Source: a bacterium (GTDB lineage: Bacteria; Blakebacterota; Blakebacteria; Blakebacterales; Blakebacteraceae). Taken from it: 12,382 nt of DNA. The position numbers were made by a program, and so were the translations under genes. Positions 1,172 to 11,680 of this stretch are shown here, piece after piece; the first letter of the stretch is position 1, and each line of letters starts with the position of its first letter. The notes under the pieces were generated by a model. The model was not told the DNA's origin. It did no database searches and worked only from the letters and a program-made list of their open reading frames with translations. The stretch lies in the NCBI GenBank assembly GCA_025774205.1, contig JALGWK010000067.1, positions 1 to 12,382 on the forward strand. The letters run 5' to 3'.

Positions 1172-1930
1172 TCACTCACGACCGAGGATCCAGAGGATCC
1201 CCCCTCTCAGATGCTCCCGGAAGAGGGGATCGTCGTAATGTTCGATCTTGTGTCCGAGGGCCGTGTACCACTGCCTGCCCCCTTCGAAGGTATGGTGCCA
1301 GGCCAGCGGGATGTAGTCGCCGAAGGTTGTCCCGGGATATTCCTCCCGCCCGGCATCCTCGACCGTCGTCAGATCGGCCGCCAGCAGGACATGGATGTCG
1401 GGATTGAGATGATGGAGGTAGTAACACTCATCCTCCCATGGCCAGACATCGGGGAGATGGACGGTTGACAGGTGCTCCCCGTCGATCACCCGGATCTCGA
1501 AGGGCTGCAGCGCGGGATGACGACGGAAGAGACCACCCTGCATGGCCCAGAACCAGGGCCACTCCCGTTCGCTGCCGCTCGAGGAATGGATCCCGGCGAA
1601 GCCCTTCCCCGAGCGTATCCAGGCCTGGAAGGCATCCCGCTGGGCGGTAGTGGTGAAGGCATCGTTGTTGGAATTGGAGAAGATCACGGCGTCGAACGCC
1701 TCGAGCTGATCGGGGGTGAAGACGGCCGGGGTGTCCGTGACCACCGTCTCGATCCCCAGATCGGCACAGATCTCCTCGAGAGCCTGCACACTGGCGGCGA
1801 TGTTGTCGTGGACGAAGCCGACTCCGTTCCGGGTGTAGATCAGGACCTTCTTCCCCCTGACCCTGCCCTCCCCGGAGGCGCAGGAACTGACGAGCGCTGC
1901 CAGTAGGAGGATCACGATGGTACGCTTCAT
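1172..1930 (-). CDS. ThuA-like domain lipoprotein
   Basis: A 252-residue ThuA-like (trehalose-utilisation) protein with a class I glutamine amidotransferase-like fold. Residues 1-17 are a lipoprotein signal ending in VSSC (Cys17), so the mature protein is probably membrane-anchored outside the cytoplasm. Family blocks are the strand KKVLIYTR (27-34), HDN at 41-43, GFAGIHSSSG (110-119), the usual GFVGIH region, and WYTALGHKIEHY (221-232), which matches the C-terminal YTSLGH block. Length is normal for a single-domain ThuA protein. Rhizobial ThuA works with the Gfo/Idh protein ThuB in trehalose breakdown through a 3-keto intermediate, and the Gfo/Idh gene follows immediately here. A role in processing a 3-keto sugar is therefore inferred. 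It starts 16 bp after the PmoA-like gene ends, consistent with one transcript. Confidence 0.9.
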   Translation of the reverse strand: MKRTIVILLLAALVSSCASGEGRVRGKKVLIYTRNGVGFVHDNIAASVQALEEICADLGIETVVTDTPAVFTPDQLEAFDAVIFSNSNNDAFTTTAQRDAFQAWIRSGKGFAGIHSSSGSEREWPWFWAMQGGLFRRHPALQPFEIRVIDGEHLSTVHLPDVWPWEDECYYLHHLNPDIHVLLAADLTTVEDAGREEYPGTTFGDYIPLAWHHTFEGGRQWYTALGHKIEHYDDPLFREHLRGGILWILGRE

Positions 1931-1946
1931 GGTCTCTCTCCCCCGT

Positions 1947-3197
1947 TCATCGTTCGGCCATTGCCGGCCAGGCGTAGTTCCGCCACAGTCGATCGATCAG
2001 GTCGGCCTCCATCTCTCCGTCAAAGACCAGGGCCCGGTAGCGCAGAACATATTCCTGCCCGGGCAGAAGGTACCAGGTCTCATGCCGGATGGGACAGAAC
2101 TCGAAGTACTGATCTCCCCGTCCACCGTTGGCATTCTCGGGCCAGATCCTCATCGGTTCGGGGTGGGCGCGGTTGGCGGGATGGCTCATGAAGACGATCC
2201 CCGATCTCCCCCCCGGCGCGGTCTCGCCCTCCACCAGACACCAGCGGGCGAACGAGGCATCGGCTTCCGATCTCGTCAGTCCTTCAGATGTCAGTACCGT
2301 CGAGTTCTCGTTGGTCCATTCCTCCGTGGCGCGGAATCCGATCCCACCGCCGTAACGGTAGGCCGTCAGTTCCACCAGGCTGTCGGTGGCGCAGCTGAGC
2401 GTGAAGGTGAAATCGACCAGCCAGACCTGTCGGCCATCGAGATAGAGACTCCAGCTATGGACGTCCCAGACCTCGTTCAGGGCAACTTTGTCTGCCCCGG
2501 GGGCGGTGAAGTCGACATGCTCGTGATGGGCCCTGAAGCCCGCGAAGAGGCACCCGGAGTAGTGTGAGAGGATACCGGCGTGTCGTACCGTACCCAGGCC
2601 GAGGGCGAGGTTCCAGAAGTCGACCTCGCGGCCTTCGAAGATGGTGTGCGTCCAGGGATTCCATATCCCGTAGTGATGGTAATGATCGTCGGGCTGGATG
2701 GCCGTGAGGACGGCTCCCGCGGGGGAGCGGAGGGGATGGATGTACGCCCCGGCGCGCCCGTTGAGCGGATCGGTCCCCTCGGGGGCCTCGATGAAGGCGT
2801 GCCGGTACCGCAGGACCTCCTGTTCTCCGAACCGGATCGTGATATCGTGACGGTCGATCCGGGCGCTCATCCCCGGCTTATACCCGATCTCCGGCACCTT
2901 CATGACCCGGTAACGGACCCGCTCGCCCCCCGTGATGGTCTCCCCGGGAACGAACCAGAGCCGCGGTGTGATCCCCCCCTCGACCTGGGCGGGAAGCACG
3001 GTCCAGCTGTCCCCCTCCATCCGGTGGAGGACCAGCGTACCCTCGTCCGGATTGTAGTCCACCCCGGTCAGATCGACAGAGAGCGGCTGGTTCAGGAAAT
3101 CCTCACGGGGAGCGAGGGTGAACTCAAGGACAGGATCCGATTGTGCTGAACAGACGAGCGGCCAGAGCAGCAGAAGGAACGCGGGGATTCTTCTCAT
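1947..3197 (-). CDS. PmoA-like (DUF6807) secreted protein
   Basis: A 416-residue protein of the family annotated as PmoA-like or DUF6807. The name 'methane oxygenase PmoA' is historical, and nothing here suggests methane oxidation. Residues 1-18 are a Sec signal peptide (MRRIPAFLLLLWPLVCSA, cleavage before QS). The hallmarks are RAGAYIHPLRSPAGAVLT (148-165) and the histidine-rich DDHYHHYGIWNPW (170-182), equivalent to the family's DHPHHRG block. The rest looks all-beta. Members often lie beside Gfo/Idh, ThuA and glycoside hydrolases in planctomycete and FCB genomes. The biochemical role is not established, and a carbohydrate-related role is inference. It is the first gene of the leftward operon and diverges from the 3440 gene. 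The ribosome-binding site before ATG 3197 is weak. Confidence 0.85.
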   Translation of the reverse strand: MRRIPAFLLLLWPLVCSAQSDPVLEFTLAPREDFLNQPLSVDLTGVDYNPDEGTLVLHRMEGDSWTVLPAQVEGGITPRLWFVPGETITGGERVRYRVMKVPEIGYKPGMSARIDRHDITIRFGEQEVLRYRHAFIEAPEGTDPLNGRAGAYIHPLRSPAGAVLTAIQPDDHYHHYGIWNPWTHTIFEGREVDFWNLALGLGTVRHAGILSHYSGCLFAGFRAHHEHVDFTAPGADKVALNEVWDVHSWSLYLDGRQVWLVDFTFTLSCATDSLVELTAYRYGGGIGFRATEEWTNENSTVLTSEGLTRSEADASFARWCLVEGETAPGGRSGIVFMSHPANRAHPEPMRIWPENANGGRGDQYFEFCPIRHETWYLLPGQEYVLRYRALVFDGEMEADLIDRLWRNYAWPAMAER

Positions 3198-3231
3198 GAC
3201 AGCCCGGTTCTGCGGATAGTTGATGCGATCG

Positions 3232-3257
3232 ATCGGACTCGTTTCATCGAATCCGAT
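3232..3257. promoter_or_regulatory. 26-bp inverted repeat in divergent intergenic region (candidate operator)
   Basis: The left arm ATCGGACTCG (3232-3241), six-base spacer TTTCAT and right arm CGAATCCGAT (3248-3257) match at 9 of 10 paired positions. It lies 35 bp upstream of the leftward operon's start codon and about 180 bp upstream of the rightward one. A dyad this size in the control region between two divergent operons would suit a LacI- or GntR-type repressor, but no regulator gene is in the window. A TATACT hexamer at 3298-3303 could be a rightward -10 element, but I see no convincing -35. Confidence 0.4.
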
Positions 3258-3439
3258 AGTAGAGCGATAGTCCGGGACCGTCCACAGGCAACGGCTGTAT
3301 ACTCTCGCCCGGAAGCATCCCTCAACCTGATCCCCGGGTAACGATGACGGACTCTTCTCCTGTTCGTGCCATGATCTGCCTTCTCTCCCTGCAGCTGACA
3401 GCGGTCTGCCTCCTTACCCACCACCTGAGGATGACCTTC

Positions 3440-5815
3440 ATGAATAGTGAAGAACACCGGCACTCCGCGACCGGAACGATCCTGCACTCTCTCCGCAGAG
3501 CAGACCTGTTCGCGCGTATCGGGCTCATTTGCCTGCTGGGCGTTCTTGGTGCCTGCGGACGCGCGGGCACCACCAGCCGTACGGGTTCTGATGACGAGAT
3601 GGCCATCACCAGTACGGAGACCGGTTACCGGGTGACACTCGATGAGGTGGAATGCCTTGACTTCCGTCTCCCCGAACTGAACGGGATCGGCCAGCCCCGG
3701 GTGTCGGTGAAGGCGGTCGAGGATGGCTGGCAGCGGGTGAGCCTGCGGTGGGAGGTGCCCGGAGAGATCGCCCAGGACGAACTCTCCGTGCTCTTCGACC
3801 TCACCATGCAGCCCGATTTCTGGTGGGCGCCCCATCTCGCCCCGGAAGAGGGGTACGTTGTCGCGCAGCACGTCTTCCGTTCACCCGCCCTGCTCGTCCA
3901 GCAGGATGAACTCAGCCTGGCGATCGTTCCCGACCTCGACCTGGTCGGAGACCGGCCGGGTAATCCCTGGTTCCTCGATTTCGATGCCCCGGCGCGACAG
4001 ATGTGGCTCGGCATGGTCCTGACCGACATCCCGGTTCACGTGCTCTACACGAAACGACCGGGGATGACCTTCGAGGCCGGCGAGGTGGAACTTGCCTTCT
4101 ACATCCGTGCCTGGAACGATCAATGGGGAATCCGCAATCCCTGGGCTCCGGTTGCCTCCTTCCTGTGGGAGCGGTGGGGTACCCCCCTGCTGACTACCGG
4201 GGAACCGGTCCAGGCCTCGCTCGAGACCTACACGCGCCGCACCTACGACTGGGCTTTCGATTCCTGGGGTGATCATGTCTGGCAGGAATTCGAGATAGAC
4301 GGCACCCGGGTCGGCGCACCGCAGTTCATCGTCAACATCTCCCAGTCGCCCAACTATCCGGGGGTCTGGTACCAGCGGGAATTCCTCTCGATCTGGAACC
4401 AGGCCTGGTTCTCATCCCTGCGCAGTGCCTCTGGTCTCTACCGGTATGCCCGGGATATCGGGGATGAGGAACTGCTGCGTAAGGCCCGGCTTACGAAGGA
4501 ACTGGCCCTGGCGGCCCCGATGAACGACGGGATCTTCCCGGCCGTGATCCGCACCCCGAACGAGACGGTTGAGATCGACGGGGAGGGATATCGCCGTCCG
4601 CAAGGCTGGGACGAGGCGGTCTGGACCAACTCGAACCGCTCACCGCGGGATCATGGCATCTCCGACGCCTGGTACCACGTGCTCGACGCCAGCTGGACCG
4701 CTCTCCTCATGCTCCGCTGGCATGAGGAACTGGAGCGTGATGAGCGCCTGGTTGACTTCGCCAGCACCTGGGGTGACCGTCTGCTCACTCTTCAGGATGA
4801 GGAGGGGTTCTTCCCCGGCTGGCTCCACCCGGAGACCCACCTGCCGGGACCGGTGATGAACCGGACCCCCGAGACAAGCATGAGTGTGACCTTCCTGCTC
4901 GAGCTGGCCGGGATCACCGGAGAGGAACGGTACCGCGAGGCCGCCCTGCGAGCCATGGACGCGGTGCTGAACACGATCGTACTTGAAGGAAACTGGCTCG
5001 ATTACGAAACCTACTGGTCGTGCTGCGGCTGGGGCCGGGAACTCTATCTCGATCGGAAGATCGAACGGAACGCCATGCACAAGCAGAACACTCTCTCGAT
5101 GTTCTGGACCGCCGAGGCGCTCCTCGCGAGCTGGCGTGCCACCGACCAGCAGGTGTACCTCGGAGCCGGCTGGCGGACCCTCGACGAACTCTCGATGGCC
5201 CAGCAGGTGTGGCAGCCACCTTTCATCTACGTACCCGCCCTGGGCGGATTCGGGGTGATGAACACCGATGGTGAGTGGAACGATTCTCGTGAGACCCTCT
5301 TCGCCGAGCTCTTCCTCGACTACTACCGCTGGACCGGGAATCCCACCCACTTCGAGCGCGGCATCGCGGCCCTGAAATCAGGCTTCATCATGATGTACTG
5401 CCCCGAGAACCCGATCGTGCAGGCCATGTGGGAGAAAGTCTATCCCTGGTTCGGACCGGAGGACTTCGGCTTCACCATGGAGAACTACGGCCACGGCGGT
5501 CTCACCTCGGCGGAGGGTGAGGGGATGGGGGTCTTCACCATCTACGACTGGGGCAACGGTGCAGCGGCCGAGGCCGCGATGCGTATCATCGATCACTGGG
5601 GCCAGGTGTACATCGACCGTGTACGCGGCCGGGCTTTCGGGATCGACCGGGTAGAGGTGAACAGGAGAGGTCGGGGCTGGGAGCTCGTGAACGAGATCGA
5701 TGAGCCGCGGTCCATCCGGGTGGTCTACGAGGATGGTTCGGAAGAAGTGGTTGAGATCGTTGACCGGATCGTTATCCGGCCTCCGGTCCCGGATGACGAT
5801 CGGCGATCGCCATGA
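3440..5815 (+). CDS. Large lipoprotein with probable six-hairpin glycosidase-type fold
   Basis: A 791-residue protein when started at ATG 3440, chosen because GAGG at 3427-3430 sits nine bases upstream. In-frame ATGs at 3344 and 3431 only add residues before the signal. The N-terminus has a positively charged stretch, a hydrophobic segment and lipobox LGAC (Cys39). Residues about 60-260 look beta-rich. Residues about 320-670 show repeated helical pairs with aromatic and acidic residues typical of (alpha/alpha)6 barrels, such as LLELAGITGEERYREAALRA. Distinctive sites are YWSCCGWGR (525-533) and ENYGHGGLTSAEGEG (681-695). I cannot assign a named glycoside hydrolase family or catalytic residues. 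Context, divergent from a sugar-oxidation operon and just upstream of GH172, points to a glycan-active enzyme. A lyase or non-catalytic barrel is also possible. Confidence 0.75.
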   Translation: MNSEEHRHSATGTILHSLRRADLFARIGLICLLGVLGACGRAGTTSRTGSDDEMAITSTETGYRVTLDEVECLDFRLPELNGIGQPRVSVKAVEDGWQRVSLRWEVPGEIAQDELSVLFDLTMQPDFWWAPHLAPEEGYVVAQHVFRSPALLVQQDELSLAIVPDLDLVGDRPGNPWFLDFDAPARQMWLGMVLTDIPVHVLYTKRPGMTFEAGEVELAFYIRAWNDQWGIRNPWAPVASFLWERWGTPLLTTGEPVQASLETYTRRTYDWAFDSWGDHVWQEFEIDGTRVGAPQFIVNISQSPNYPGVWYQREFLSIWNQAWFSSLRSASGLYRYARDIGDEELLRKARLTKELALAAPMNDGIFPAVIRTPNETVEIDGEGYRRPQGWDEAVWTNSNRSPRDHGISDAWYHVLDASWTALLMLRWHEELERDERLVDFASTWGDRLLTLQDEEGFFPGWLHPETHLPGPVMNRTPETSMSVTFLLELAGITGEERYREAALRAMDAVLNTIVLEGNWLDYETYWSCCGWGRELYLDRKIERNAMHKQNTLSMFWTAEALLASWRATDQQVYLGAGWRTLDELSMAQQVWQPPFIYVPALGGFGVMNTDGEWNDSRETLFAELFLDYYRWTGNPTHFERGIAALKSGFIMMYCPENPIVQAMWEKVYPWFGPEDFGFTMENYGHGGLTSAEGEGMGVFTIYDWGNGAAAEAAMRIIDHWGQVYIDRVRGRAFGIDRVEVNRRGRGWELVNEIDEPRSIRVVYEDGSEEVVEIVDRIVIRPPVPDDDRRSP

Positions 5816-5835
5816 CATTCAGGCCGGCACCGACG

Positions 5836-5856
5836 GGAGGTGACGACATCACCTCC
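5836..5856 (+). other. Intercistronic hairpin
   Basis: A perfect 8-bp inverted repeat, GGAGGTGA (5836-5843) and TCACCTCC (5849-5856), with five-base loop CGACA, lies in the 77-bp gap between the six-hairpin and GH172 genes. There is no T-run after it, so it is not a textbook terminator. In RNA it would form a GC-rich hairpin 36 bases before the GH172 start. That could stabilise or process the transcript, or set the expression ratio. The left arm resembles a Shine-Dalgarno sequence but has no start codon behind it. The role is inferred. Confidence 0.4.
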
Positions 5857-5892
5857 ATCCGGATAACATCCCGCTGGAAAGGAGCCTTAGTC

Positions 5893-7047
5893 ATGAGGAA
5901 ACTGGCATCAGCAGTCATCGCATGCTCGCTCTGCATCATCGGTCTTGCCGGATGCAGCGAGAAGGAGGAGATCGACGTGTTCGAAATCAGTCTTACATCC
6001 CTGCCCCTCCTCAGTGACGCACAGACCAGATCTATCAGCCCTGAGAACTTCACCGGCGAGAAGGGCAAGGGCGGAATGGCCACTGAGGGCACCGGCGCCA
6101 ACGCCGCCCGCGAGCTGGGTCAGGGCTGGAAGGTCTCTCCTTCGGTCCGGATCGAAACCGGGGAGACCTTCACGCTGGCGGAGATCGATGGATCGGGCGC
6201 AATCCAGCACATCTGGATGACCCCGACCGGAGACTGGCGCCACTCGATCCTCCGCTTCTGGTGGGATGGAGAAGAGGAGCCGTCGATCGAGGTCCCGGTG
6301 GGTGACTTCTTCGCCAACGGCTGGGGATCGTTCGCACACGTGAACTCGCTGGCAGTCTGCGTCAATCCGGGCAGCGGCTTCAATTGCTACTGGACGATGC
6401 CCTTCAGGCGGTCGTGCCGGATCACCATGGAGAACATCAGTGAGGACCCGATGTACCTCTACTACCAGATCGACTACACCCTGGCCGACATCCCCGGTGA
6501 CGCCGCTTACCTCCATGCCCAGTTCAGGCGGTCGAATCCCCTGCCCGACATGACCGATTACACCATCCTCGAGGGCGTCCGCGGCCAGGGCCAGTACGTC
6601 GGCACCTACATGTGCTGGGGGGCCAACAGCCCCGGCTGGTGGGGTGAGGGCGAGATCAAGTTCTTCATGGACGGCGATGACGAGTTCCCTACCATCTGCG
6701 GTACGGGGACCGAGGACTACTTCTGCGGCTCGTACGGCTTCTCCAGTCCCTACACCCGCGACTACATGGAGTTCAGCACGCCCTACGCGGGCATGCCCCA
6801 GGTCATCAAACCGGATGAGGAGAAGGGCACGCCCCCCCGGTTCGGACTCTACCGGTGGCACATCACCGATCCGATCCGGTTCGCCGACGACCTGCGGGTG
6901 ACGATGCAGGCCCTCGGCTGGCAGAGCGAAGGACGGTACCTCCATCTGCAGGATGACATCTCCTCGGTGGCCTTCTGGTACCAGGCTGAACCACACGCGC
7001 CCTTCCCGACCCTGCCCTCGCCCGAGGAACTGGCGATCGTGAAGTGA
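5893..7047 (+). CDS. GH172 (DUF2961) family lipoprotein glycosidase
   Basis: A 384-residue protein. ATG 5893 is chosen because AAGGAG lies eight bases upstream and a textbook lipoprotein signal follows directly (LAGC, Cys21). The in-frame ATG at 5812 overlaps the previous stop but puts 27 unlikely residues first. Family blocks are TEGTGANAARELGQGWKVSP (64-83), IQHIWMTP (104-111), WWGEGEIKFFMDGD (249-262) and GTGTEDYFCGSYGF (270-283). GH172 was defined from difructose-anhydride and arabinofuranose-active enzymes, which are oligomeric. The acidic residues in the last two blocks are the likely catalytic ones (family knowledge from memory). The substrate here is unknown, a furanoside being a reasonable guess. 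It probably acts at the envelope. It is second in the rightward operon. Its stop overlaps the next gene's GTG start, so the two may be translationally coupled. Confidence 0.9.
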   Translation: MRKLASAVIACSLCIIGLAGCSEKEEIDVFEISLTSLPLLSDAQTRSISPENFTGEKGKGGMATEGTGANAARELGQGWKVSPSVRIETGETFTLAEIDGSGAIQHIWMTPTGDWRHSILRFWWDGEEEPSIEVPVGDFFANGWGSFAHVNSLAVCVNPGSGFNCYWTMPFRRSCRITMENISEDPMYLYYQIDYTLADIPGDAAYLHAQFRRSNPLPDMTDYTILEGVRGQGQYVGTYMCWGANSPGWWGEGEIKFFMDGDDEFPTICGTGTEDYFCGSYGFSSPYTRDYMEFSTPYAGMPQVIKPDEEKGTPPRFGLYRWHITDPIRFADDLRVTMQALGWQSEGRYLHLQDDISSVAFWYQAEPHAPFPTLPSPEELAIVK

Positions 7048-7826
7048 ATCCTCTTATCCGGTGCGCTATTCTGTGCCTGCTTCTGGGTGTTCCATCTGTC
7101 TCTTCCGCTCAGGTAAGTCCGCTGGAACGGGCCATGGCCCTCTGTGATTCGGGCATTGTATGTCTCGAGCGGGGAGACATTCAGACCGCCCACTCTCTTC
7201 TCAGCCAGTCACTTGTGCTTGTCGACGACGATCCCGGGATTCTCATCGGGATGGGTCGTGTTCTACTGGCGACTCCCAGACAAGCCGGGCGTGCCCTTGA
7301 GTATCTGTCTCAGGCAGTGAGGCTGGATCCAACAAACCCTGCCGCGCGTTACTACAAGGCCCTGACCCACATCGAACTCTCAAAAAGAGTGCTGGACGTG
7401 GGCAATGCTCAATTTGCGCTGCAGGAGCTCCAGGCCCTCACAGCAATTGATCCATCCCACCCGGACGCCTGGTTCCAGATAGGCTCTCTCTCCAGAGATC
7501 ACTTCCAGGATCCGGGGGAGGCCAGCAGGGCATTCCAGATGCAGATAGACGCCAATCCCGCACATATCGAGGCTCGGGCGGAACTTCTGCGCACTCTGGC
7601 AGAGATGGGGGAGTGGCGGAAGGCAGTCGACGTCGGGGAGGATCTCCTCGGACGGGATCCTCCGTTGGAATCATTTCTGTATTGCGCCGGATCGTACTGG
7701 AGGCTCGATAATCATCGGGAAGCCAGAGGAATTTTCGAACGCTACTTTGCAGCCGCACCCGATCAGGAAAGAGCCCTCTACTTCGATCTTTCTTTCATCC
7801 TCCCGAGAGGCCCGCACTTACGCTGA
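7044..7826 (+). CDS. N-terminal fragment of the GWxTD gene: signal peptide and TPR repeats
   Basis: This is the open frame that would be translated as it stands (260 codons, the last eight after the shift). A Sec signal (MNPLIRCAILCLLLGVPSVSSA) precedes TPR-like helix pairs, for example ALEYLSQAVRLDPTNPAARY and ASRAFQMQIDANPAHIEARA. TPRs usually hold protein partners. The frame ends in the non-homologous tail RGPHLR and a stop just inside the GWxTD domain. A stable truncated TPR protein is possible but has no support beyond the frame itself. Confidence 0.6.
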   Translation: MNPLIRCAILCLLLGVPSVSSAQVSPLERAMALCDSGIVCLERGDIQTAHSLLSQSLVLVDDDPGILIGMGRVLLATPRQAGRALEYLSQAVRLDPTNPAARYYKALTHIELSKRVLDVGNAQFALQELQALTAIDPSHPDAWFQIGSLSRDHFQDPGEASRAFQMQIDANPAHIEARAELLRTLAEMGEWRKAVDVGEDLLGRDPPLESFLYCAGSYWRLDNHREARGIFERYFAAAPDQERALYFDLSFILPRGPHLR

Positions 7827-8030
7827 TCTCCCACTTTCAGGCAGAACCGAGTACTGGAACCATTACTGGACAGTCAGGGATCCCCTGCCACAAACAATGG
7901 AAAATGAGCGGCTGATTGAACACTTCATCCGGGTTGCTTGGGCACGGCTCGAGTTCGGCCGCACCGCATGGCCCTGGGATGCTCGCGGAGATTTCTACGT
8001 TCGCTACGGGGAACCCGATCACCGCAGCGC
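7795..8030 (+). other. Out-of-frame GWxTD domain segment
   Basis: In the frame containing codon 7747, positions about 7806-8028 encode the GWxTD core: REARTYADLPLSGRTEYW, then WTVRDPLPQTMENERLIEHF, then AWPWDARGDFYVRYGEPDHR. The order, a W-x-x-RDP-x-P block followed by a W-x-W-D and YGEPD block, is that of GWxTD domains, with the name motif reading AWPWD. The segment has no start codon of its own at a sensible place and meets a stop at 8098-8100, so it is not expressed as a domain unless the frame is restored. Confidence 0.7.
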
Positions 8031-9278
8031 GATTCCGATCCACTCCTGTTCTCCCGGAAGCGGGACTTCGAAGAGAGCATGGGAGTATCCTCAATGCTGA
8101 CCGGAATGGGCCTGCTGGATGTCTACGATGGTGCGGAGAGGGTGATAATGGAGGCCATCGTCGATTCCCTGATGCGGCTCTATCCGGATGCGGACATGCA
8201 GACGATAATCCGGGAGGCGGAGCTCGAGATGGAGAATCGAATGTTGAGGGCCGCCTCCTCTCCAGCGCCGGAACGCTGGGTATACCTGGACCGGGGGATC
8301 GACATCAACTTCGATGATCCGGTCGGGCGGGGTGCATACCTCATATCGGGTGACCGGTCCCGGGTGCTTGTTGAACGTATGGAAGCGGGACTCCCGAGTC
8401 TGTCTGAAGCAGAGGACGCTATCGAGCACATCGACCCCATGGACACAGTTGTCACCTTCCGGGGCTCGAACGACCGTACCGTCGTCGAATATGCCTTCGC
8501 CCTGCTGCCGGACGAGTTCGGCTCATTCAGGAGCCGGACCGGCGCCTATGCTTCTATTGAGGTTGACGTCAGGCTTTTCAATCCCGATTGGACACCGGTG
8601 ACAGAGAGCGATGTGAGACGCAGGCGACTGGAGACGGTGTCGGAGGTAAACATCAGGGGCATCCCTCTTTTCGTTGATTGCACGCGCCTTGAAGTCGTTC
8701 CCGGAACATACCTGCTCACGACATTCCTGCTGGATCCGGTATCGGGGAAGAGGGCTACAGCAGAGGAAGAGATCGAGCTTCCTGACTACTCCGGCTCCGG
8801 GCTGATGCTGAGCGATATTCTCCCGGCGGCTTTGATCCGGGAGGTGGAGCCGGGATTGGCATCACGATTCCGACGCGGGGAGCTGGAGGTCCTCCCGCTT
8901 CCAGGCAGAGCACTCCAGGTCGATCAACCTCTATTCATCTACTACGAGATCTACAATCTCGAGAAGAACGACGTCGGGGGAACAGATTACGAGGTCACCT
9001 ACTCAATCGCCGAGATGCCTGATGGGTCCGGGATCGGCGCGAGACTCTACCAGGGAGAGGTGAGTCCTGTCAGAGCGAGGCGGCGCAGAATCGTTCTCTC
9101 GTCCTCCTTTCCACGCAGCGGCATTCAGACAGATATCAGTGAGTATCTGGAACTGGGCATGGAAGAGTTACCGCCCGGCACATATCTCCTTGAACTGACC
9201 GTGCGTGATGTCTTAAGCGGAGCAGAAACCAGTAAACAGTTACTGTTCAGAACATTGCCAAAGGCCGGGCGTCGGTAA
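8028..9278 (+). CDS. C-terminal fragment of the GWxTD gene
   Basis: About 416 codons in the same frame as the N-terminal fragment, from RDSDPLLFSRKRDFEESMG onwards. Internal starts exist (ATG 8079 or 8094), but without a signal peptide they would give a cytoplasmic fragment. The sequence is helical to about 8280 and then beta-strand-rich, with the family's ILPAALIREVEPG, LPLPGRALQVDQPLFIYYEI and LPPGTYLLELTVRDVLSG segments. It ends at TAA 9276-9278. The function of this domain is unknown. Confidence 0.6.
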   Translation, partial: RDSDPLLFSRKRDFEESMGVSSMLTGMGLLDVYDGAERVIMEAIVDSLMRLYPDADMQTIIREAELEMENRMLRAASSPAPERWVYLDRGIDINFDDPVGRGAYLISGDRSRVLVERMEAGLPSLSEAEDAIEHIDPMDTVVTFRGSNDRTVVEYAFALLPDEFGSFRSRTGAYASIEVDVRLFNPDWTPVTESDVRRRRLETVSEVNIRGIPLFVDCTRLEVVPGTYLLTTFLLDPVSGKRATAEEEIELPDYSGSGLMLSDILPAALIREVEPGLASRFRRGELEVLPLPGRALQVDQPLFIYYEIYNLEKNDVGGTDYEVTYSIAEMPDGSGIGARLYQGEVSPVRARRRRIVLSSSFPRSGIQTDISEYLELGMEELPPGTYLLELTVRDVLSGAETSKQLLFRTLPKAGRR

Positions 9279-9302: not shown

Positions 9303-9492
9303 CGGTTGACGGTATCTTCTATATTGAGTTCATGCGGATCATCGAAGAGAGCATATCTGCGGACGAACTGGTGAAGAGATGACCCGTCTCCGCGAGGTCC
9401 TGCTGGACTACTTTCTCGGAGACAACCTCTACGGATCGACACCGGAGTCCTGGCACCGGTACTTCCACCCGTTCGGGGTAGCCGCGAACAGG
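9303..9492 (+). repeat. Decayed direct copy of the DUF5674 two-gene cassette
   Basis: Positions 9303-9373 match 10933-11003 with only two differences, both in the leader; the first 42 coding bases are identical. Positions 9372-9492 match 11505-11626 at about 93 per cent with one G missing. The intervening 500 bp or so, most of gene A and the first 70 codons of gene B, are deleted. Homology stops abruptly at both ends. The remnant fills most of the 306-bp gap between the GWxTD and zincin genes. Confidence 0.92.
9332..9382 (+). pseudogene. Truncated DUF5674 gene, 16 codons
   Basis: ATG 9332 opens MRIIEESISADELVKR and stops at TGA 9380-9382. The first 14 residues equal the start of the intact DUF5674 protein at 10962. 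The deletion junction follows codon 14. This is a gene remnant. Whether the peptide is made is unknown. Confidence 0.8.
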
Positions 9493-10543: not shown

Positions 10544-10930
10544 TCATTCAGGATTCAGTCGATACAATCCTGCTCCGTGAGGTGGAATCGAAGGAGCAAA
10601 CTCATAGTTGTAGGTCCCTAATTCTGTATTCTCCCACAGATCACGAATTCCACATGTTCCTGAATCGAAGATTTCCATAAGTAATACACTGATGCTGATT
10701 GTTAGTTCATCATCCAGATTGAACACGGCAAGATATCTGTCCTGCGAAGCAGGAATGTCGGCAATCCAGGCAATTTGATTGTCACGCCGGAACAACTCAT
10801 GATTATCGGTACTGCCCCTGTTCACATTCAGTACACCCTGATTCGTGATCAACGATTTCGTGAATTCATCGTTATCCGGCATGTGCCCGGCGGTAATGGA
10901 TTGGTCATTATGGCGGAAGTCTACCTGTTC
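10544..10930 (-). pseudogene. C-terminal fragment of an alpha-galactosidase-like glycoside hydrolase
   Basis: On the reverse strand the frame reads EQVDFRHNDQSITAGHMPDN from the 10930 end, then LITNQGVLNVN, IAWIADIP, YLAVFNLDDE, RDLWENTELGTYNYEF and PPHGAGLYRLNPE, ending at TGA 10546-10544. This order (LLTN-EVL-VNQ, then the beta-sandwich with RDLWE and PPHG-LYRL) is that of the C-terminus of GH27-like alpha-galactosidases. The catalytic barrel is absent. An ATG at 10882 could start 112 residues, but that would be only the tail. By hand count 10561-10860 is about 45 per cent GC, against about 65 per cent in a 60-base sample of the zincin gene, suggesting foreign origin. The fragment breaks off beside the cassette leader at 10933. 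Confidence 0.68.
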
Positions 10931-10932
10931 GA

Positions 10933-10961
10933 CGGTTGGCGGTATCTTCTATATTGGGTTC
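10933..10961 (+). promoter_or_regulatory. Conserved leader of the DUF5674 cassette, possible promoter
   Basis: The 29 bases before ATG 10962 recur before ATG 9332 (9303-9331) with two changes. TATATT at 10950-10955 (9320-9325 in the other copy) would place a transcript start near the ATG, giving a leaderless or very short-leader mRNA. There is no clear Shine-Dalgarno sequence. No good -35 lies at 16-18 bp within the repeated part. The conserved TTGRCGG at 10936-10942 is too close to act as a normal -35 but could be an operator half-site. Confidence 0.35.
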
Positions 10962-11306
10962 ATGCGGATCATCGAAGAGAGCATATCTGCGGACGAACTG
11001 GTGGAGATAGCCCGGGAAGGCTTCGGGGACATGGTCAAAGGGGTTGTGGATGTGAAGCGCGGCATCATGGCCCTGGGAGCTGAACTTCATTCGGACGAAG
11101 AGGCGGTGCTCCTGGAATCGGGCTCTGACCAGAATGACCTCTGGGGTATCAACCTCTATCCGGAGGACATCGGGGAAGAGGCCTTCATCGAGTTCGATTC
11201 AATGATCAACATCCGCCCGAGCAGGGGGAACCAGAGTCGGGGAGTAGATGATCCTGCGATCAGGGAACAGATCGTCGAGATCGTCGGAACGCTGGTGACG
11301 GCATGA
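10962..11306 (+). CDS. DUF5674 family protein (cassette gene A)
   Basis: A 114-residue cytoplasmic protein matching DUF5674, a family without known function. ATG 10962 is chosen because the family sequence begins MRIIEESIS and because the repeated copy conserves this ATG and its leader. The frame is open further upstream, to an ATG at 10845, but that part overlaps the reverse-strand alpha-galactosidase fragment. Conserved-looking blocks are FGDMVKGVVDV (21-31), GAELHSDEE (39-47), DLWGINLYPE (59-68) and FDSMINIRPSRGNQSRGV (78-95). Acidic and histidine residues (H43, D45, E46, E47) and the RPSRGNxSRG loop could form a binding or catalytic site, but this is a guess. The stop overlaps gene B's start (ATGA, 11303-11306), implying coupled translation and a joint role. 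Confidence 0.85.
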   Translation: MRIIEESISADELVEIAREGFGDMVKGVVDVKRGIMALGAELHSDEEAVLLESGSDQNDLWGINLYPEDIGEEAFIEFDSMINIRPSRGNQSRGVDDPAIREQIVEIVGTLVTA

Positions 11307-11632
11307 CCGAACAGCACCCATCTCTGGCGGCCGGTCGATGGCGGGAATTCCCGCTCGTCGTACAGTTCGCCCATATCGGCAGCGAGGTGGAACGGGCGCT
11401 GAACTGGGAAGCCAGGGGCAAGGAGGAACGGTCCCGCCGGGCCCTGGAACGCGGGCTTGAACTGCTCAGCCTGACCATCGCCGATCCCAGGCATCGAGGT
11501 CGTCTGAAGGAGATGACCCGTCTCCGCGAGGTTCTGCTGGACTACTTTTTCGGAGACAACCTCTACGGATCAACACCGGAGTCGTGGCACCGGTACTTCC
11601 ACCCGTTCGGAACAGCCGCAAACAGGAGATAG
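11303..11632 (+). CDS. Small helical partner protein of DUF5674 (cassette gene B)
   Basis: A 109-residue, charge-rich, probably all-helical cytoplasmic protein with no signal or membrane segment. I recognise no named family, but its core (VQFAHIGSEVERALNW at 20-35, LTIADPRHRGRLKEMTRLRE at 57-76, DYFFGDNLYGSTPESWHRYF at 80-99) looks like a conserved bacterial family rather than a chance frame. The decayed copy with mostly silent differences confirms it is a real gene. ATG 11303 overlaps the gene A stop, and TAG is at 11630-11632. The two proteins probably form a complex or a regulated pair. An antitoxin/toxin-like arrangement is possible, but no HEPN, PIN, RelE or MazF motif is visible. Function unknown. 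Confidence 0.8.
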   Translation: MTEQHPSLAAGRWREFPLVVQFAHIGSEVERALNWEARGKEERSRRALERGLELLSLTIADPRHRGRLKEMTRLREVLLDYFFGDNLYGSTPESWHRYFHPFGTAANRR

Positions 11633-11680
11633 GCCGGAGTCCGCCGAGGAGACCGGATCATCCTGACCGGAGTTAATGCC

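What the first reader, a model, noticed from the sequence alone, without database searches (positions are those of the whole stretch)
10933..11632. Compact two-gene cassette (DUF5674 + 109-aa helical protein): candidate undescribed two-component module
Seen: two small cytoplasmic genes with an ATGA overlap, a short own leader and a second copy of the same unit 1.6 kb upstream. Known: DUF5674 has no assigned function, and coupled small gene pairs that duplicate and decay locally are typical of toxin-antitoxin, modification-pair or mobile accessory modules. Inference: the two proteins act together. The conserved H/D/E cluster and RPSRGNxSRG loop in A make A the more likely enzyme, with helical B as partner.
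Basis: partly seen in the sequence, partly recalled or inferred. Interest (0 to 1): 0.72.

Follow-up and report, generated by a model that had tools for sequence, protein, structure and literature searches.

The report
Unnamed two-gene toxin-antidote-like bacterial cassette
Two small overlapping bacterial genes of unknown function turn out to be inherited together across many phyla and on conjugative plasmids, and because the first gene keeps breaking while the second survives, they look like an undescribed toxin and its antidote, although no one has tested this.

Summary
Window 10962-11306 encodes a DUF5674 protein (A; Pfam E 9e-38), overlapped by ATGA with a 109-aa helical protein (B, 11303-11632; no match in Pfam, NCBIfam, PADLOC or PHROGs). 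The "second copy" is only a deletion scar: 75 nt of the start of A joined out of frame to 117 nt of the end of B.

The pairing is real and near-obligate. In samples of three phyla (584 genomes), 142 of 146 A genes are followed directly by B or a B-like small helical gene. The pair also sits on 32 cyanobacterial plasmid records, half of them conjugative, and on two viral contigs, in changing neighbourhoods.

New result: decay is one-sided. A is broken with B intact in 16 loci; the reverse occurs once (sign test p = 0.0003, not corrected for relatedness). Intact B stands alone 18 times, A 4 times. A therefore behaves like a costly or dependent partner and B like its neutraliser. My best explanation is a type II toxin-antitoxin-like module with A as toxin (confidence 0.5).

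Not shown: toxicity, target, or binding. A's predicted fold matches nothing solved; the A-B interface was not resolved (pTM 0.60). The main rival is an enzyme with an obligate partner.

The parts
10911..10961 (+). Leader of the pair; TATATT 6 nt before the A start codon, no visible ribosome-binding site (possible leaderless promoter). The last 29 nt (10933-10961) are repeated at 9303-9331.
   Evidence: Shared with G001 and, from 10933, with copy 2; promoter role is inference (no sigma-70 consensus hit).
10962..11306 (+). Gene A: 114-aa DUF5674 protein, proposed toxin-like or dependent component.
   Evidence: PF18924 E 9e-38; AF2 pLDDT 89, pTM 0.83, beta-alpha-beta-beta-alpha-beta-beta-alpha; conserved K26 D30 H43 D45 E47 W61 N83 P86 N90.
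11303..11632 (+). Gene B: 109-aa all-helical partner, proposed neutraliser; overlaps A by ATGA.
   Evidence: Start overlap read directly; four-helix bundle in the model of its homologue; no known family.
9303..9377 (+). Deletion derivative, left part: leader (29 nt) plus the first 45 nt of a second A.
   Evidence: 96% identical to 10933-11007.
9376..9492 (+). Deletion derivative, right part: last third of a second B, fused out of frame to the A start.
   Evidence: 93% identical to 11510-11626; junction read.

Best explanation
A-B is a compact, horizontally mobile two-gene module that works like a type II toxin-antitoxin system. A (DUF5674) is the harmful or at least B-dependent component and B (a four-helix bundle) binds and restrains it. 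Translation of B is coupled to A through the ATGA overlap, so that no A is made without B. Shown: near-obligate adjacency across phyla, overlap, purifying selection on both genes, presence on conjugative plasmids and in changing neighbourhoods, and one-sided decay of A. Inferred: direct A-B binding, toxicity of A, and an active site formed by K26/D30/H43/D45/E47 with the conserved loop N83-R93. The target (RNA, nucleotide or protein) is unknown.
For: (1) Adjacency: Patescibacteria 52/52 A genes, Omnitrophota 66/70, Acidobacteriota 24/24 are followed by B or a B-like gene (90, 91, 94, 98; 120-122). None of 14 well-known control genomes has A. (2) Mobility: 32 cyanobacterial plasmid records carry A, 17 of them typed conjugative, and each A locus read there has B next to it or, once, split off by a TnpB insertion. 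Two viral contigs carry A-B. G000 and G001, same genus, share the unit at 84-93% DNA identity but no alignable flanks. (3) One-sided decay, counting only samples searched from both sides or finished plasmids: A broken with B intact 16, A intact with B broken 1 (p = 0.0003); intact B alone 18, A alone 4 (p = 0.004). (4) Both genes are under purifying selection where intact, dN/dS 0.07-0.23. (5) Orphan antitoxins are abundant in confirmed TA families, read by the authors as degrading pairs or anti-addiction modules (PMC7192599).
Against: No toxicity or binding data exist. A stands alone in four Omnitrophota loci (L204, L208, L210, L211), although these A sequences are divergent. No known toxin or antitoxin family matches. 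The interface was not resolved (pTM 0.60). Most genomes carry a single copy and A occurs in 26-45% of the CPR and Omnitrophota genomes sampled, which also suits an accessory metabolic pair. Toxin-first order is the less common TA order. Counted loci are not phylogenetically independent, and many come from metagenome assemblies.
Confidence: 0.5

Rival explanations
1. A is a small enzyme or binding protein with a beneficial accessory role and B is its obligate partner or chaperone (B's bundle most resembles FliS-type chaperones). Nothing is toxic; A is lost when the role is no longer needed.
For: A alone is rare because it would misfold without B. A is as conserved as or more conserved than B (dN 0.08 against 0.25 in L106/L111). 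B's bundle aligns with FliS chaperones, Z 10.0. Single copy per genome.
Against: A partner without its client should decay first or together with it; instead B stays intact after A breaks (16 to 1) and stands alone 18 times. FliS similarity at Z 10 is within what unrelated helical bundles give, as the tool itself warns. The pair is frequent on conjugative plasmids.
Confidence: 0.27
2. It is an anti-phage or anti-plasmid defence module (abortive-infection type) rather than a maintenance module; A acts only when triggered by a mobile element.
For: Neighbours in some plasmids include a dpdE gene and a TnpB gene, a VPA1262-family gene and transposases. A solitary B lies beside what reads like a hicAB pair (L194). 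Patchy distribution.
Against: No PADLOC model matches. Neighbours are mostly unrelated and no defence island recurs. The pair itself occurs on viral contigs.
Confidence: 0.13
3. B has its own cellular function and A is a regulator or modifier of B; loss of A simply frees B.
For: B alone is retained in many genomes (L078-L082, L162, L273).
Against: In one plasmid lineage lacking A, B itself is broken in three of four members (L113, L114, L124 against L115), which argues against an essential independent role of B.
Confidence: 0.1

Closest known systems
DUF5674 (Pfam PF18924)
   Same: A is a member: E 9e-38 over residues 3-110.
   Different: The family has no assigned function, no paper in the library searched and no relative of known structure found by sequence. 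The constant partner gene B is not part of its description.
Type II toxin-antitoxin modules (such as HigBA, MqsRA, HicAB, in which the toxin gene comes first; order from general knowledge)
   Same: Two small overlapping co-directional genes, plasmid carriage, patchy spread, orphan second gene (as in PMC7192599).
   Different: Neither protein matches a known toxin or antitoxin family; B has no recognised DNA-binding domain; toxicity is untested.
HEPN-MNT toxin-antitoxin pairs
   Same: One small alpha/beta protein plus one helical protein of about 100 aa, overlapping genes.
   Different: B lacks the R-x(4-6)-H motif among its invariant residues and A lacks the GS...DxD nucleotidyltransferase motif (alignments).
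FliS flagellin chaperones
   Same: Closest solved folds to B: four-helix bundle, Z 10.0, rmsd 3.2, 97 residues.
   Different: No sequence family match; bundles of this kind match by chance; no flagellar gene among the neighbours examined.
CheD / YfiH-type fold
   Same: CheD is among the best but weak fold matches of A (Z 3.2, rmsd 3.6, 76 aligned); both have a GG-x-x-H stretch.
   Different: The catalytic Cys of CheD is absent (K26 in A). Profile comparison aligns only six residues, probability 0.1%. Photosystem PsaD chains score the same Z.

Membership tests
DUF5674 (PF18924) | Score above Pfam gathering cut-off over the whole domain | tested here: met
   129.1 bits against cut-off 27, profile 2-108 of 109.
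Type II toxin-antitoxin system | Two small adjacent, co-directional, coupled genes that co-occur | tested here: met
   142 of 146 A genes with B or B-like partner directly downstream; ATGA overlap in the window.
Type II toxin-antitoxin system | Spread by horizontal transfer, on plasmids or other mobile DNA | tested here: met
   32 cyanobacterial plasmid records, 17 typed conjugative; two viral contigs; changed context within one genus.
Type II toxin-antitoxin system | Toxin stops growth when expressed alone and antitoxin neutralises it | not testable with these tools
   Only an indirect sign: A breaks with B intact 16 to 1.
Type II toxin-antitoxin system | Antitoxin protein binds toxin protein | tested here: inconclusive
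   AF2 of the A-B read-through in L033: pLDDT 91 but pTM 0.60, so domain arrangement is not determined.
Type II toxin-antitoxin system | Member of a described toxin or antitoxin family | tested here: not met
   No Pfam, NCBIfam or PADLOC toxin/antitoxin family.
HEPN-MNT pair | R-x(4-6)-H in the HEPN protein and GS...DxD in the MNT protein | tested here: not met
   Neither motif is among the conserved columns of B (A3) or A (A5).
CheD glutamine deamidase | Catalytic Cys-His pair and CheD sequence family | tested here: not met
   K26 stands at the Cys position by spacing; hhalign probability 0.1%.
FliS chaperone | FliS sequence family and flagellar context | tested here: not met
   No FliS family hit in any of 27 B proteins at E<=1; fold similarity alone.
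Known anti-phage defence system | Match to a defence-system model | tested here: not met
   PADLOC-DB 2.0.0: no hit for A or B at E<=1.

The most novel reading that the evidence does not exclude
A new class of toxin-antitoxin (or abortive-infection) module, common in uncultured phyla and cyanobacterial plasmids. Its toxin has an undescribed fold and active site, and it is matched with at least three divergent types of helical-bundle antidote (B1, B2, B3) at the same genomic position.
Probability: 0.4. Interest if true: 0.75.

Novelty: new variant of a known kind. Interest (0 to 1): 0.52.

Why it matters
DUF5674 is in about a quarter of sampled Patescibacteria and nearly half of sampled Omnitrophota genomes, and on cyanobacterial plasmids, yet has no function and no paper in the library searched. 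Showing that it almost never travels without its partner, and that decay is one-sided, gives the family a concrete hypothesis that a simple bench experiment can test. If true, it adds a toxin with an unmatched fold and explains an orphan family in lineages that are mostly uncultured.

Tried and rejected
Second copy as an intact duplicate: rejected; it is a deletion scar.

Strict rule 'A never without B': rejected; four Omnitrophota A genes have no partner next to them. In two of those genomes a solitary B lies elsewhere.

CheD-like deamidase idea from the weak fold match and the equal 17-residue spacing of GG-x-x-H: not supported by profile comparison.

EsaG, PsaD and cytidine deaminase fold hits: E >= 1.4 or Z <= 3.3, not meaningful. 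Viral structure library: nothing below E 0.16.

Phage collection: no A. B in viral contigs by pattern scan: none confirmed, though two contigs were found through A.

A common 3' breakpoint of A deletions near codons 80-87 looked programmed. Internal deletions are in frame in L009, L013 and L016 but out of frame in L035, L180 and L192, so no case for programming is made.

Homology of B1, B2 and B3: hhalign gives 6-39% probability with helices 1-2 in register; left as plausible, not shown.

First attempt at an A-B alignment misplaced B on A and was redone.

Full report
WHAT IS THERE. The window is one contig (G000:C206) of a 527-contig draft genome, 86% complete, from a small group whose nearest named record is a Candidatus Latescibacterota MAG. 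At 10962-11306 lies gene A, 114 aa, DUF5674 (PF18924, E 9e-38). Gene B, 109 aa, starts inside the A stop codon (ATGA, 11303-11306) and ends at 11632. B and 26 relatives match no Pfam family convincingly; A and B have no NCBIfam, PADLOC or PHROGs match of note. The upstream 'copy' at 9303-9492 is 75 nt from the start of the unit joined to 117 nt from its end, out of frame: a deletion scar of a former second copy.

IS THE PAIR REAL? I searched A and B independently. B in GTDB contigs gave 29 loci in about ten phyla; 26 have A or a piece of A directly upstream, one (L012) is masked there, and two (L029, L037) have none. In 192 Patescibacteria genomes A occurs at 52 places, all followed by B or by an analogous small helical gene, usually overlapping. 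In 145 Omnitrophota genomes there are 70 A places: 55 with B, 10 with a B-like gene of another type, 1 with a frameshifted B, 4 with no partner. In 247 Acidobacteriota genomes there are 24 A places, all with a partner. Total 142 of 146. No A in 14 well-known control genomes.

THREE PARTNER TYPES. Besides the window type (B1), divergent A proteins are followed by a 90-100 aa type (B2, ending in a WAE..LTWANIL.HRA helix) or a cyanobacterial type (B3). Helices 1-2 align in register between types, but profile probabilities are only 6-39%, so common descent is plausible, not shown.

MOBILITY. A is on 32 cyanobacterial plasmid records (17 conjugative by PLSDB typing) and B on 40, with changing neighbours (transposases, TnpB, dpdE, efflux genes). 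Two viral contigs carry A-B; the phage collection has no A. In G001, same genus, the unit is 84-93% identical at DNA level from 10911 to 11656 (except A codons 26-80, deleted there), but the flanks do not align and the next gene (a mechanosensitive channel) has only 27% relatives there. Rearrangement rather than transposition could also explain this.

ONE-SIDED DECAY. This is the main new finding. I counted only samples searched from both sides (three phyla) and the plasmid loci read in full. A broken, B intact: 1 Patescibacteria (L101), 2 Omnitrophota (L180, L192), 5 Acidobacteriota (L250, L253, L254, L255, L257), 8 plasmids (L105, L109, L118, L119, L121, L122, L123, L125) = 16. A intact, B broken: 1 (L199). 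Intact B with no A: 5 + 6 + 3 + 4 = 18 (L078-L082; L162, L184, L193, L194, L196, L197; L273, L274, L277; L112, L115-L117). A with no partner: 4. Sign tests give p = 0.0003 and 0.004; the loci are not fully independent, and plasmid loci were read selectively, though records not read show single-piece matches covering most of both genes. The lesions differ from each other (stops, frameshifts, N-terminal losses, internal deletions), so most are separate events. Six further broken A genes (L009, L013, L016, L024, L034, L035) were found through B alone and are left out of the test. L012 is masked and not counted.

SELECTION. Where intact, both genes are under purifying selection, dN/dS 0.07-0.23.

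STRUCTURE. A alone: pLDDT 89, pTM 0.83, order beta-alpha-beta-beta-alpha-beta-beta-alpha; the conserved RPSRGNxSRG loop is the least certain part. No solved fold matches (Foldseek best E 1.4; VIA best Z 3.3). A-B: the pair in L033 is in one frame, so a read-through of its TAG stop was folded with unpaired rows; pLDDT 91, pTM 0.60. B is a four-helix bundle, nearest to FliS (Z 10.0), within the range of chance for bundles. No interface can be claimed.

HOW IT MOST LIKELY WORKS. Inference: A is a small toxin-like protein whose conserved K26, D30, H43, D45, E47 and loop residues form its active or binding site; B binds A and blocks it; overlap couples their translation. When A breaks, B remains as a harmless or protective orphan, as reported for orphan antitoxins in Klebsiella (PMC7192599). 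What would argue otherwise: the four solitary A genes, and the fair fit of an enzyme that needs B to fold. Confidence 0.5.

NOVELTY. No paper in the library names DUF5674. As a candidate toxin-antitoxin-like module with an unmatched A fold and its own partner family it is a new variant of a known kind, pending a toxicity test.

Noticed in passing
window 10544-10930 (- strand): Fragment of an alpha-galactosidase (Melibiase_C domain, E 6e-9) that lacks its catalytic part; its 5' end is cut close to where the A-B leader begins.
   Followed up: partly
window 7044-9278: TPR protein, GWxTD domain (TIGR04514, E 5e-12) and a following 446-aa ORF in different overlapping frames: one GWxTD protein split by frameshifts, or assembly errors.
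   Followed up: partly
G001:C179:5114-5278 (L009), L013, L016: Three in-frame internal deletions of A in different phyla that all rejoin at the NIRP motif (codons 81-83), leaving about 60-aa mini-A proteins with intact B.
   Followed up: partly
L210 and L211 (Omnitrophota): Divergent DUF5674 gene without B, fixed between glmS-like and rsmI-like genes in two genomes that each carry a solitary B elsewhere.
   Followed up: partly
L194 (Omnitrophota): Solitary B directly downstream of genes that read like a hicAB toxin-antitoxin pair.
   Followed up: no
L120 (Nostoc sp. ATCC 53789 plasmid pNsp_b): A TnpB-family gene lies between A and B, splitting the pair.
   Followed up: no
window 1172-7047: Run of secreted or lipoprotein genes with ThuA, DUF6807 and DUF2961 domains, a likely sugar-use cluster.
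   Followed up: no
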